DNA from: Candidatus Bathyarchaeota archaeon BA2
GTDB lineage: Archaea; Thermoproteota; Bathyarchaeia; Bathyarchaeales; Bathyarchaeaceae
Length of the DNA: 52,394 nucleotides
Assembly: GCA_001399795.1 (NCBI GenBank)
Contig: LIHK01000006.1
Coordinates: 1-52,394, forward strand
Reading direction: 5' to 3'
In this document: positions 5,000-8,544 of the stretch, in pieces
Layout: every line of letters begins with the position of its first letter
How positions within the stretch are numbered: the stretch's first letter is position 1
Program-made: the position numbers and the translations under genes
Notes under the pieces: model-generated
What the model saw: the letters and a program-made list of their open reading frames with translations, nothing else
Told to the model about the DNA's origin: nothing
Databases searched by the model: none

Positions 5000-5030
5000 A
5001 AAAACTAGGAGGTGAAACCTCCTAGTTTTT
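5000..5030. terminator. Perfect 14-bp hairpin spanning a stop codon
   Basis: The arms aaaaactaggaggt (5000-5013) and acctcctagttttt (5017-5030) are perfectly complementary around the three-base loop gaa. With A/T runs at its outer ends it would behave as a U-tract terminator on either strand. It overlaps the last codons and stop of the broken ATPase gene (end at 5022), so it probably ends that transcript. Confidence 0.6.
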
Positions 5031-5783
5031 CACCTCCTCCCCGATCCAATTCTTCTCCAACTCCTCCAAAAGAAGACTACACTTGCCGGTCTCAACACCG
5101 CTTAACTTCTCATAATCGCCCACAGAAAGAGGCTGAAGCAACACAGAAATCCTACGAAGAAGCAACAAACACTTCTTAGACAAACGCTCAAAACACCACT
5201 TAACAAGCTCACAATACCCTTCCCTGCCCACACGAAGCTCATCCAACTTCAAATCCTTAGAATATATCAACCAGCTAGAGATAAGAAAAGGAAAACCCCC
5301 GGAAAGACGTCTAATCCTCTTCAACTCAGGATAAGAAAACTCCTTCCCCCTAGCCTTCAATATCCATTCTCCAATTTCCTCAGCAGACAAGGGGAGAGGA
5401 CTTAAAAACTGAGCATTCAACTGCACAAGCTCAGGTTTGATAGACTCATACTTCGCCACACCTTCTTCCTCAACTTTGAAAGAAAATACAACGTGCACTC
5501 TCTCAGGTTTCTTCCTAACAAACCCCAACAAAATGCGACATGAATCTAAAGGCGCTCGCTCAAACTGGTCAATAACCAAAACAAACTCCAACTTCCCATA
5601 CTCCTTAACAAGCTCGTTGAAAAAGAAAACAAAATCATAAACAAACTCTTCTTTATAATCATAAAATAATTTCTCAGTGAGGGACTCAACAGTTCGAGTT
5701 TCCTTCCACTCCTCAATAGCTTTCTCTAACTCTTCAATCGCCTCCTTACCAAACCACTTCACAGCAAAGCTTTTAATCATCAA
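5022..5783 (-). CDS. C-terminal part of a broken archaeal ATPase (STAND/AAA-like)
   Basis: 253 aa with the Walker B of an archaeal ATPase (VLVIDQFE) and the downstream sensor/lid and winged-helix-like region of that family, but no Walker A. The missing N-terminus is found in pieces upstream on the same strand: 5784-5896 carries the next segment in another frame, and 6565-6738 carries the residues before the P-loop. A run of seven G on the coding strand (5796-5802) separates this frame from the next piece; one extra G would join them. The TTG at 5783 could start translation, but the product would lack nucleotide binding. I read it as a decayed gene. Confidence 0.75.
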   Translation of the reverse strand: MMIKSFAVKWFGKEAIEELEKAIEEWKETRTVESLTEKLFYDYKEEFVYDFVFFFNELVKEYGKLEFVLVIDQFERAPLDSCRILLGFVRKKPERVHVVFSFKVEEEGVAKYESIKPELVQLNAQFLSPLPLSAEEIGEWILKARGKEFSYPELKRIRRLSGGFPFLISSWLIYSKDLKLDELRVGREGYCELVKWCFERLSKKCLLLLRRISVLLQPLSVGDYEKLSGVETGKCSLLLEELEKNWIGEEVKN

Positions 5784-5896
5784 CTTAGCGAAACGCCCCC
5801 CCTCTCAGAGAAAACCTCATGAAAACCAACAATAACCTCCTTTAGAAAAGGGAATTTATGATCAAAAGCATCGAGGAAGAAAACGCTCAAGAAAAG
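5784..5896 (-). pseudogene. Middle fragment of the broken ATPase
   Basis: On the minus strand, one frame reads through about 31 codons (including FFLDAF and KFPFLKEV) up to the G7 tract, where it would need one extra base to continue into the 5022-5783 frame. A third frame at the upstream edge reads TFLERF, which is what usually follows GKS in a Walker A motif. At least two frame changes occur within about 100 bp, so this is not translatable as one protein. Confidence 0.65.
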
Positions 5897-5968
5897 TTAG
5901 TTGTTTTCTTTATTAAACGAGCGTAATATTTATAAAGATTAGTGAAAGAAATTATAAACAGAAAGATC

Positions 5969-6013
5969 ACCGGGTGGTGGTTCCCGTCTTGGGATTAAAA
6001 ACCACTGCTCGGT
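5969..6013 (+). other. Stem-loop next to the NYN gene
   Basis: As plus-strand RNA, the 14-nt arms at 5969-5982 and 6000-6013 pair fully with three G-U wobbles, and the 17-nt loop contains a nested CCC/GGG mini-hairpin. On the minus strand the wobbles become mismatches, so it is a weaker terminator for the NYN gene, which ends two bases away at 6016. It could be a small structured RNA or a degenerate terminator. Confidence 0.35.
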
Positions 6014-6015
6014 AG

Positions 6016-6537
6016 TTAGACACTTTTCGTGCGCTTTATGTGGTCTATCAATTTATCCAAGCAGATGTAGTTATCAATTCCGACTTCTAATTTCAATTCC
6101 TCTGCAATCGTGTGTTCAAATGCTGCAATTTCTATCCATTTTCCCATTTCCTTCACCGCTTTTATTGCAGGCTTGTAGTCCTTGTCCCCCGTAACTAGAA
6201 TCGCGACATCATAGAGATCTTTATGTCCATACAGCAACAGATCTGTGACTAACGAAATGTCAACCTCTTTTTCCTTTGAACGCGCCTCCACGCCGAACTC
6301 TCGCAGAGGGTAGATTTTGACTTCCCATCCCATGTATCGAAGTCTGGTGTGGAAGGCTTCTTGCTCGGGTCTTTTCACTTTTGGCGTAGATCCATAAAAG
6401 TGGGCCCTGATCAGTCTTCGGTTAGGTTTTGCGTTGGTAAGGAAATCTCTTAATTTGCCGTAATCAATCCTCACTTTGAGCTCTTCACATGCATGGAAAA
6501 GATTAGATCCGTCGATAAAAATCATAATTCTATCCAT
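6016..6537 (-). CDS. NYN-domain (LabA/DUF88-like) putative RNase
   Basis: 173 aa forming a single NYN domain, a PIN-related Mg-dependent nuclease fold. Conserved acidic motifs are visible: IFIDGSNLF (Asp9), EVDISLVTDLL (Asp93, Asp99) and VTGDKDYKPAI (TGDKD 116-120). It is predicted to cleave RNA; the substrate is unknown. It lies exactly inside the interrupted ATPase gene: fragments of that ATPase flank it at 5022-5896 and 6565-6738. It has its own TATA-like box at 6562-6571, within the inserted segment, which suggests independent expression. The ATG at 6537 is the natural start. Confidence 0.85.
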   Translation of the reverse strand: MDRIMIFIDGSNLFHACEELKVRIDYGKLRDFLTNAKPNRRLIRAHFYGSTPKVKRPEQEAFHTRLRYMGWEVKIYPLREFGVEARSKEKEVDISLVTDLLLYGHKDLYDVAILVTGDKDYKPAIKAVKEMGKWIEIAAFEHTIAEELKLEVGIDNYICLDKLIDHIKRTKSV

Positions 6538-6561
6538 CTTCCCACATCGTAAAAATAAATA

Positions 6562-6571
6562 ATACTATAAG
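6562..6571 (-). promoter_or_regulatory. TATA-like box for the NYN gene
   Basis: The minus strand reads CTTATAGTAT about 25-34 bases upstream of the ATG at 6537, a plausible archaeal TATA element. It overlaps the last codons of the ATPase remnant frame. Confidence 0.35.
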
Positions 6572-6738
6572 TACGTATTAAACTTTCTAGTCGATGCCCG
6601 GCTCGCCAGCCATAACAAAAGCCAACTCCTCTCATCCTTCAAAAACTCAAAAAACCGCTTAATCTCCTCCTCACGACCGACAAAAATCTCCTCACTCTTC
6701 AACAAAGCAACCACACCGCGTACAAAACACAACCACAT
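6565..6738 (-). pseudogene. N-terminal remnant of the interrupted ATPase, ending in a broken Walker A
   Basis: A 57-codon frame from ATG 6738 encodes EEIFVGREEEIKRFFEFL, the segment that precedes the P-loop in archaeal ATPases of this type. Just after SWLLL the frame slips: in the neighbouring frame the same DNA reads MAGEPGI then D and a stop, where an intact gene would read GEPGIGKST. So homology stops inside the Walker A codons. The downstream remainder of the gene resumes at about 5899, on the other side of the NYN gene. Frame shift, truncation and position show it is a pseudogene half. Confidence 0.75.
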
Positions 6739-7160: not shown

Positions 7161-7559
7161 ATGGGGAAAGTTGAGGAATTGCTTGTGGAGTCTGAGGATT
7201 TCCTAAAAGCCGCTAAAAAAGAGTTTGAAGTTGCATTAGCCAAGAATGATGTGGTGCGCATTCGCGATTCCGCCGAGAAGGCTTGGAACTCTGTCGTTCA
7301 GGCAACCAACGCTTTGCTGCTGGCTTTGACGGGAAGGGTCCCATTGAGCCACCATGAGAGGAGGGTCATGCTTCGCGAAACCGAGAAATCAAAGCCAGAG
7401 GTTAGGGACCTAGGCATTAGAGATAGATACATGGCTAGGTTCAAGGTATTACACGGCGAGACCTTCTATGAGGGTGTGATCGACATCGAGGAGCTTAGGC
7501 TGGAGATGGAAAAAGTCGACGAATATATAAACAGCATAAAGCCCATAGCTACAAGATAG
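7161..7559 (+). CDS. PaREP1/HEPN-like all-helical protein
   Basis: 132 aa, strongly helical, with a central AEKAWNSVVQATNALLLAL segment like the PaREP1/HEPN superfamily of archaeal accessory proteins. The catalytic RX4-6H motif of HEPN RNases is not evident; SHHERR near residue 63 is the closest basic/His cluster. The PIN-like remnant just upstream may be its former partner, since HEPN proteins often pair with nucleotidyltransferases or nucleases, but that is inference. The ATG at 7161 has no strong ribosome binding site. Function unknown. Confidence 0.7.
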   Translation: MGKVEELLVESEDFLKAAKKEFEVALAKNDVVRIRDSAEKAWNSVVQATNALLLALTGRVPLSHHERRVMLRETEKSKPEVRDLGIRDRYMARFKVLHGETFYEGVIDIEELRLEMEKVDEYINSIKPIATR

Positions 7560-8142: not shown

Positions 8143-8544
8143 GTGGGCTTTGCTAAGGCTAAGTTTAGGGTTGTAGGGGATAGTGATGCTTTCGAGGGCG
8201 TTGCTTTGGTTGATAGTGGTGCATGGTATACGGTTATTGATGAGGGGCTAGCTAGGCAACTGGGCGTAAAATACACGGGGTTAAGTGTAACGTTAACCTT
8301 GTTTTCTGGGCATAGGATTGCCTGCCGTGAAGGCATAATAAATTCTGTTACCCTTGAAGAGAAAACGGCACCTTCTGAACTTGTTGCAGTGTGTTCAATA
8401 AATGAATCCATAAAAGGCTTGCTCAAGAAACAGGAAGTCGAAGATCGTTTAGTAATAGGTGTACATACCCTTGAAAGGTTGGGCTACGCCATAGATGTAG
8501 TTGCACATAAGCTAATCGAATCACCTGGAATCTTAATGATTTGA
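8143..8544 (+). CDS. Retropepsin-like (clan AA) aspartic protease
   Basis: 133 aa with the two hallmarks of a single-domain retropepsin fold: the catalytic ALVDSGAWYT (DSGA 24-27), and a later hydrophobic-hydrophobic-Gly motif LVIG (103-106) followed by LERLGYAID. Such proteins act as homodimers, each giving one Asp. The predicted start is GTG at 8143. No transmembrane segment or phage/retroelement neighbour is visible; it stands alone within the decayed accessory island. The substrate is unknown. A proteolytically inactive paralog is possible, but the Asp is present. Confidence 0.75.
   Translation: MGFAKAKFRVVGDSDAFEGVALVDSGAWYTVIDEGLARQLGVKYTGLSVTLTLFSGHRIACREGIINSVTLEEKTAPSELVAVCSINESIKGLLKKQEVEDRLVIGVHTLERLGYAIDVVAHKLIESPGILMI

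What the first reader, a model, noticed from the sequence alone, without database searches (positions are those of the whole stretch)
5022..6738. ATPase gene split exactly inside its Walker A motif by a NYN-nuclease cassette
Minus-strand homology to one archaeal ATPase stops at the codons for GEPGI (near 6592) and resumes with TFLERF (near 5899), the residues that flank GKS in an intact P-loop. The ~700 bp between carry a NYN gene with its own TATA-like box, and the 8-mer tattaaac occurs near both edges (5911-5918, 6576-6583). Either a small nuclease cassette inserts into P-loop genes, or the NYN gene was captured when the ATPase decayed. The remaining ATPase pieces also carry frame changes.
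Basis: partly seen in the sequence, partly recalled or inferred. Interest (0 to 1): 0.7.

Follow-up and report, generated by a model that had tools for sequence, protein, structure and literature searches.

The report
RNase gene lodged in dead ATPase
In an uncultured archaeon a small, still-functional RNA-cutting (NYN) gene sits in the ATP-binding motif of a broken ATPase gene; it looks like a horizontally moved gene that landed in a gene now dead, not a device that targets ATPases, but its relatives ride a transposon in the same genome and carry an undescribed RNA-like structure after their stop codon.

Summary
The core observation holds. Window 6705-6593 and 5783-5025 (minus strand) are two pieces of one STAND-like NTPase-TPR gene: an intact 856-aa homologue exists (G129), and the pieces match its residues 1-38 (ending exactly at GEPGI) and 114-363, in order. 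Between them lies about 0.69 kb with an intact NYN ribonuclease gene (6537-6016). The left edge inside Walker A is firm. The right edge (TFLERF, 5899) fits the base-composition change point but is not significant by alignment. The 8-mer repeat is chance-level. The ATPase has two frameshifts, a stop, an internal deletion and no TPR domain: a pseudogene.

The NYN gene is alive (dN/dS 0.11 against a 77%-identical Hadesarchaea gene). The DNA shared between the two archaea starts at the ATG and ends 64 bp past the stop, after a hairpin. It is therefore a horizontally moved compact unit. None of 106 NYN loci shows ATPase halves or shared edges, so P-loop targeting is not supported.

Two by-products are more novel. 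The genome's second NYN gene sits in a transposase-less 793-bp element with IS6-like 25-bp ends and an 8-bp target duplication. Several archaeal NYN relatives carry a covarying three-way-junction structure just after the stop codon, unmatched in Rfam.

The parts
6593..6705 (-). N-terminal ATPase remnant (residues 1-38 of the G129 homologue, ends at GEPGI of Walker A; one frameshift)
   Evidence: score 115.5 vs shuffle max 44
5912..6592 (-). Inserted segment (about 0.69 kb): promoter, NYN gene, 3' hairpin. Left edge firm; right edge somewhere in 5895-5912 (at the latest 5834)
   Evidence: both sides belong to one colinear gene
6561..6570 (-). TATA-like box TTATAGTATT, 24-33 bp before the NYN start codon
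   Evidence: sequence; function inferred
6016..6537 (-). NYN-domain ribonuclease gene, 173 aa, under purifying selection
   Evidence: Pfam NYN 1.3e-27; dN/dS 0.11 vs L100
5968..6014 (-). Hairpin directly after the NYN stop codon (loop CCCAAGACGGG 5993-5983), conserved in the Hadesarchaea copy with changed but still pairing stem
5952..6537 (-). Segment alignable as DNA (77%) to the Hadesarchaea NYN locus: starts at ATG, ends 64 bp past the stop codon
   Evidence: E 3e-122
5813..5833 (-). ATPase remnant IVGFHEV (residues 58-64), in a frame different from the C piece
   Evidence: 0 of 2000 shuffles
5022..5783 (-). C-terminal ATPase remnant (residues 114-363; Walker B-like VLVIDQFE kept, Walker A and TPR domain missing); 253-aa open frame
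   Evidence: 38% identity, E 1e-51
5000..5030 (.). 31-bp near-perfect palindrome at the end of the C piece, terminator-like
   Evidence: (90% self-inverted)

Best explanation
A compact gene unit (own promoter, NYN ribonuclease gene, 3' hairpin; about 0.6-0.7 kb) that moves between archaeal lineages was inserted into the Walker A codons of a STAND-like NTPase-TPR gene in this archaeon. The ATPase is now a pseudogene with further frameshifts and deletions. The NYN gene is still under selection and is presumably expressed from its own TATA box as a metal-dependent single-strand RNase. Shown: one interrupted ATPase gene, NYN intact and conserved, horizontal spread of the NYN-plus-hairpin unit, patchy occurrence. 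Inferred: RNase activity, expression, and that the insertion came from a mobile element whose ends are no longer recognisable or from illegitimate recombination. Hitting the P-loop is taken as coincidence.
For: Both ATPase pieces are colinear with one intact homologue. Identical gene order and orientation on both sides makes an assembly chimera unlikely. Both ATPase pieces share an unusual composition (C 9-12%, G+T 65-72%) that the NYN segment lacks. The NYN gene has a 77% DNA match in a Hadesarchaea MAG from the ATG to 64 bp past the stop, with nothing matching outside, and dN/dS is 0.11. NYN relatives occur in only 16 of 257 class genomes and the ATPase family in 2 of 257. A tyrosine recombinase lies 140 bp from the Hadesarchaea copy. 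The other NYN gene of the same genome is inside an IS6-like element with a target duplication.
Against: The window insert itself has no detectable terminal inverted repeat or target duplication. No empty-site allele exists in a close relative: the genus holds one genome and G129 is only 38% identical. The 253-aa C piece is open, so it may still be a gene. The order of insertion and decay is undated.
Confidence: 0.78

Rival explanations
1. The insert is a decayed transposon of the kind seen at C22: a transposase-less IS6-like element carrying NYN, whose 25-bp ends and 8-bp target duplication have been mutated away with the rest of the pseudogene.
For: The paralogous NYN (47% identical) in the same genome is in exactly such a 793-bp element. 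The insert is of similar size (about 0.69 kb). The end family is common in the class (40 of 257 genomes).
Against: Scan of 106 NYN loci finds inverted repeat plus duplication only at C22; window inverted-repeat score 9.5 is below the shuffle 95% value of 12.5; the Hadesarchaea copy has no such ends in the DNA held.
Confidence: 0.2
2. A dedicated nuclease cassette that targets P-loop (Walker A) sequences.
For: The left edge falls within the Walker A codons, about a 1% position for one random insertion in a 2.5-kb gene (sequence).
Against: One instance only. No other NYN locus has ATPase homology, shared flanks or a common edge; C22 hit an unrelated gene end. The 8-mer is chance-level.
Confidence: 0.03
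3. A functional rearranged locus: NYN plus a truncated, Walker-A-less regulator (the 253-aa C piece, read from the TATA-like TTTATAAATA at about 5934) acting together, for example in defence.
For: The C piece is an open 253-codon frame with the Walker B-like motif kept; STAND-TPR proteins and NYN proteins both match defence profiles; a TATA-like sequence precedes it.
Against: No second case of the arrangement in 257 genomes; N-terminal 113 residues and TPR sensor lost; frame damage just upstream.
Confidence: 0.1
4. Assembly or binning artefact.
For: The window is a metagenome-derived contig; NYN relatives lie near contig ends more than expected (6 of 10, p 9e-5).
Against: Both sides of the insert are the same gene in the same order and orientation; the window contig continues well beyond on both sides.
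Confidence: 0.03

Closest known systems
NYN / LabA-DUF88 ribonucleases (Pfam PF01936; PDB 2QIP; CRISPR-associated NYN of B. fragilis)
   Same: Single NYN domain, acidic active-site residues kept; PDB 2QIP (VPA0982) is the only PDB sequence match at 6e-6. B. fragilis NYN is a Mn-dependent single-strand RNase and resembles 2QIP (PMC11346440).
   Different: Stand-alone 173-aa gene; sits in a pseudogene; linked to a 3' hairpin.
STAND-type NTPases with TPR sensors (AAA_16/ATPase_2 plus TPR)
   Same: Intact homologue G129: AAA_16, ATPase_2 and TPR matches.
   Different: The window copy lacks Walker A, linker and TPRs; pseudogene.
IS6 family insertion sequences and passenger-carrying ISs
   Same: C22 NYN element: GG tips with GGTTCTG start (IS6/IS26 consensus GGTTCTGTTGCAAA, PMC6807381), 8-bp duplication and about 0.8 kb (PMC7986276).
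   Different: No transposase inside; NYN gene instead. PMC7986276 names a single passenger-carrying member, ISDsp3. Applies to C22, not to the window insert.
Integron gene cassettes (gene plus folded attC)
   Same: Gene followed by a hairpin, tyrosine recombinase nearby in L100.
   Different: No RYYYAAC/GTTRRRY ends seen by eye; own promoter; no array. Resemblance only.

Membership tests
NYN-domain ribonuclease (PF01936) | Profile match above curated cut-off | tested here: met
   97.5 bits vs cut-off 24.2
NYN-domain ribonuclease (PF01936) | Conserved catalytic aspartates | tested here: met
   D9, D93, D116/D118 in the alignment, corresponding to 2QIP D14/D92/D115 as listed in PMC11346440; correspondence by motif
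NYN-domain ribonuclease (PF01936) | RNase activity | not testable with these tools
   needs purified protein
TIGR00288 NYN subfamily | Score above curated cut-off | tested here: not met
   20.6 bits vs 178.45
STAND-like NTPase (flanking pieces) | Both pieces match one intact member in order | tested here: met
STAND-like NTPase (flanking pieces) | Intact Walker A (GxxxxGK[ST]) | tested here: not met
   interrupted after GEPGI at 6593
Transposon / IS insertion (window insert) | Terminal inverted repeats | tested here: not met
   score 9.5 vs shuffle 95% 12.5
Transposon / IS insertion (window insert) | Target-site duplication | tested here: not met
   only an 8-mer at chance level, not at the edges
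IS6-like element (C22 NYN paralogue) | GG-tipped terminal inverted repeats and 8-bp target duplication | tested here: met
   25-bp repeats, 21/25; TGAACAAG both sides; frame restored on joining flanks
IS6-like element (C22 NYN paralogue) | DDE transposase gene | tested here: not met
   only the NYN gene lies between the ends
Integron cassette | attC with RYYYAAC/GTTRRRY boxes | tested here: inconclusive
   read by eye in the hairpins; not seen, no formal scan

The most novel reading that the evidence does not exclude
A group of archaeal NYN RNases travels as a two-part unit, nuclease gene plus a dedicated structured RNA directly after the stop codon (three-way junction in Archaeoglobi and Methanosarcinia-type genomes, simpler hairpin in the window and Hadesarchaea). 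The RNA would be the nuclease's own regulatory target or an RNA antitoxin, and such units spread by hitch-hiking in transposase-less IS6-like elements and other insertions, killing the genes they land in.
Probability: 0.25. Interest if true: 0.72.

Novelty: new variant of a known kind. Interest (0 to 1): 0.4.

Why it matters
The interrupted ATPase is ordinary gene decay with a horizontally acquired gene inside. What could matter is the cargo: small RNase genes that move between archaeal phyla, one of them in a transposase-less IS6-like element, and an undescribed conserved structure fixed to their 3' ends. If that structure is a cis-acting target or antitoxin, it would make the unknown role of stand-alone archaeal NYN proteins directly testable.

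Tried and rejected
P-loop-specific cassette: rejected for lack of any second case. The 8-mer as a target duplication: chance. Decayed IS6-like ends at the window insert: not detectable. Close relatives for an empty site: none (genus of one genome; the family has only a weak match to 62 residues of the C piece, E 1.7e-4). NYN in viral contigs: close-relative search empty, distant search 15 weak loci; phages none; plasmids only about 30% identical bacterial proteins. Rfam: nothing convincing in the window region or at the relatives' 3' elements. R1 model does not match the window hairpin and matches L100 at only 12.5 bits, so the window hairpin is not shown to be the same element. A 69-aa ORF before the second R1 element in L102 resembles a toxin from memory, but no family matched.

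Full report
WHAT WAS CHECKED. The window is the whole contig C8 of an archaeal metagenome-assembled genome (G000, 1.46 Mb, 57 contigs). The NYN gene is real and intact: 173 aa, window 6537-6016, Pfam NYN 1.3e-27, with the acidic residues of NYN active sites.

ONE ATPASE, TWO PIECES. A search of 257 class genomes with the C piece gave a single intact homologue, in G129 (same order; 38% identity, E 1.1e-50, inside an 861-codon open frame). A further 398 phylum genomes gave none. The G129 protein (856 aa) matches AAA_16, ATPase_2 and TPR repeats. tblastn of it on the window strand gives residues 114-363 (1e-51) and residues 1-28 and 26-38 in two frames, ending at GEPGI. A frameshift-aware alignment gives residues 1-38 at 6705-6593, score 115.5, shuffle maximum 44. 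To the right of NYN, IVGFHEV (residues 58-64) lies at 5833-5813 in another frame (0 of 2000 shuffles as good), while TFLERF at 5899 is not significant against G129 (p 0.38). So the left edge lies exactly in Walker A, after GEPGI; the right edge is most likely 5895-5912 and at the latest 5834. Residues about 69-113 and all TPRs are missing, with at least two frameshifts and a stop: a pseudogene. G129 is reported 88% complete with 8% contamination, which does not affect the alignment.

THE 8-MER. gtttaata near both edges occurs by chance in 7% of shuffles and in 27 of 116 GC-matched pairs of window segments. It is not evidence of a target duplication.

THE NYN UNIT. Relatives occur in 16 of 257 class genomes, best 48%. 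Outside, the best is a Hadesarchaea MAG (L100) at 77%. DNA similarity between the two starts at the ATG and stops 64 bp past the stop codon (window 5952), after a hairpin. Outside that nothing matches, and the Hadesarchaea neighbour is a tyrosine recombinase 140 bp away. dN/dS is 0.11 at dS 1.26, so the gene has been functional. The hairpins fold at -17.3 (window) and -26.2 kcal/mol (L100), z -1.9 and -4.8, share the CCCAAGACGGG core and pair differently in the outer stem. This is a compact horizontally moved gene plus hairpin. No other NYN locus has homology to the ATPase and the flanks compared are unrelated, so there is no case for P-loop targeting.

A NYN TRANSPOSON IN THE SAME GENOME. The paralogue at G000:C22:376-876 (47% identical) lies in a 793-bp segment (C22:152-944) with 25-bp terminal inverted repeats (21/25) and TGAACAAG directly outside both ends. 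Joining the flanks gives a continuous reading frame. The ends, GGTTCTG-AACTTATCG, recur in 40 of 257 class genomes (few matches to the reversed control pattern). Paired copies with exact or near-exact 8-bp duplications surround a TnpB-like gene (L095, Cas12f1-like TNB domain 2.6e-15; L093 by sequence resemblance) and a 215-aa protein without a family (L094). In G017 such an end abuts a transposase remnant with a weak DDE_Tnp_IS240/rve_3 match. IS6 family members make 8-bp duplications and have GG-tipped ends, consensus GGTTCTGTTGCAAA (PMC7986276, PMC6807381). The C22 unit therefore looks like a transposase-less IS6-like element with a NYN passenger. A scan of 106 NYN loci for inverted repeats plus duplication found only this one (3 control hits in 293). 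The window insert fails this test, so membership in that element type is not claimed for it.

THE 3' STRUCTURE. Several archaeal NYN relatives carry a strong fold starting 5-20 nt after the stop. Six of them (Archaeoglobales, Geoglobus twice, Methanosaeta, Methanocellaceae, Methanosarcinales) share a three-way junction whose nine-pair outer stem has four pairs with changes on both sides, although some of the proteins are only 35-45% identical. A covariance model (R1) run over 14 whole genomes hit one or two places in each of six genomes. Three hits were not in the training set: after a second NYN gene (G584), after a degraded NYN gene (G586; tblastn 3.9e-11), and after an unclassified 69-aa ORF in the Archaeoglobales contig. 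Rfam has no such family among the loci searched. R1 does not match the window hairpin, so continuity with the window is only suggested by position and outer-stem shape; L042 and L100 give weak matches at the right place. Whether it works as RNA is not shown; the stem is nearly palindromic and could act as DNA or as a terminator.

CONCLUSION. Best reading: a mobile or horizontally transferred NYN gene unit was inserted into a STAND-like NTPase gene that is now dead. The insertion mechanism is unresolved: illegitimate, or a mobile element with eroded ends.

Noticed in passing
G000:C22:152-944 (L039/L099): Second NYN gene of the same genome inside a 793-bp transposase-less element with IS6-like 25-bp inverted ends and 8-bp duplication TGAACAAG; joining the flanks restores an open frame.
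   Followed up: yes
L093:498-1749, L094:510-1426, L095:447-1719, L097 (ends at about 1570): Elements of the same GGTTCTG end family carry TnpB-like genes or small membrane-type proteins and no transposase; one short end pair 92 bp apart in G145:C25 looks like a MITE.
   Followed up: partly
L102:3505-3568, L108:3508-3588, L113:1580-1660, L152:3575-3641, L173:3490-3554, L174:3570-3638, L203:1501-1570, L202:1501-1564: Conserved three-way-junction structure directly after archaeal NYN genes, with covariation, not in Rfam.
   Followed up: partly
L102:1284-1349 (-): Second copy of that structure just after an unclassified 69-aa ORF (1358-1576 -), 2.2 kb from the NYN copy.
   Followed up: partly
NYN loci: Six of the ten best NYN loci lie within 500 bp of a contig end (p 9e-5 given contig lengths), suggesting repeats or polymorphic insertions next to them.
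   Followed up: partly
L100:756-1946 (-): Tyrosine recombinase 140 bp from the Hadesarchaea NYN gene; another tyrosine recombinase precedes the NYN gene in L051.
   Followed up: partly
L040:1-370: Decayed piece resembling a D12-class DNA adenine methylase starts about 45 bp after the NYN stop in G219 (by eye).
   Followed up: no
window 5000-5030: 31-bp palindrome right at the end of the ATPase C piece, terminator-like.
   Followed up: no
window 7161-7559 (+) and 8143-8544 (+): Neighbouring PaREP1/HEPN-like and aspartyl-protease-like genes: an accessory stretch beside the RFC clamp-loader genes.
   Followed up: no
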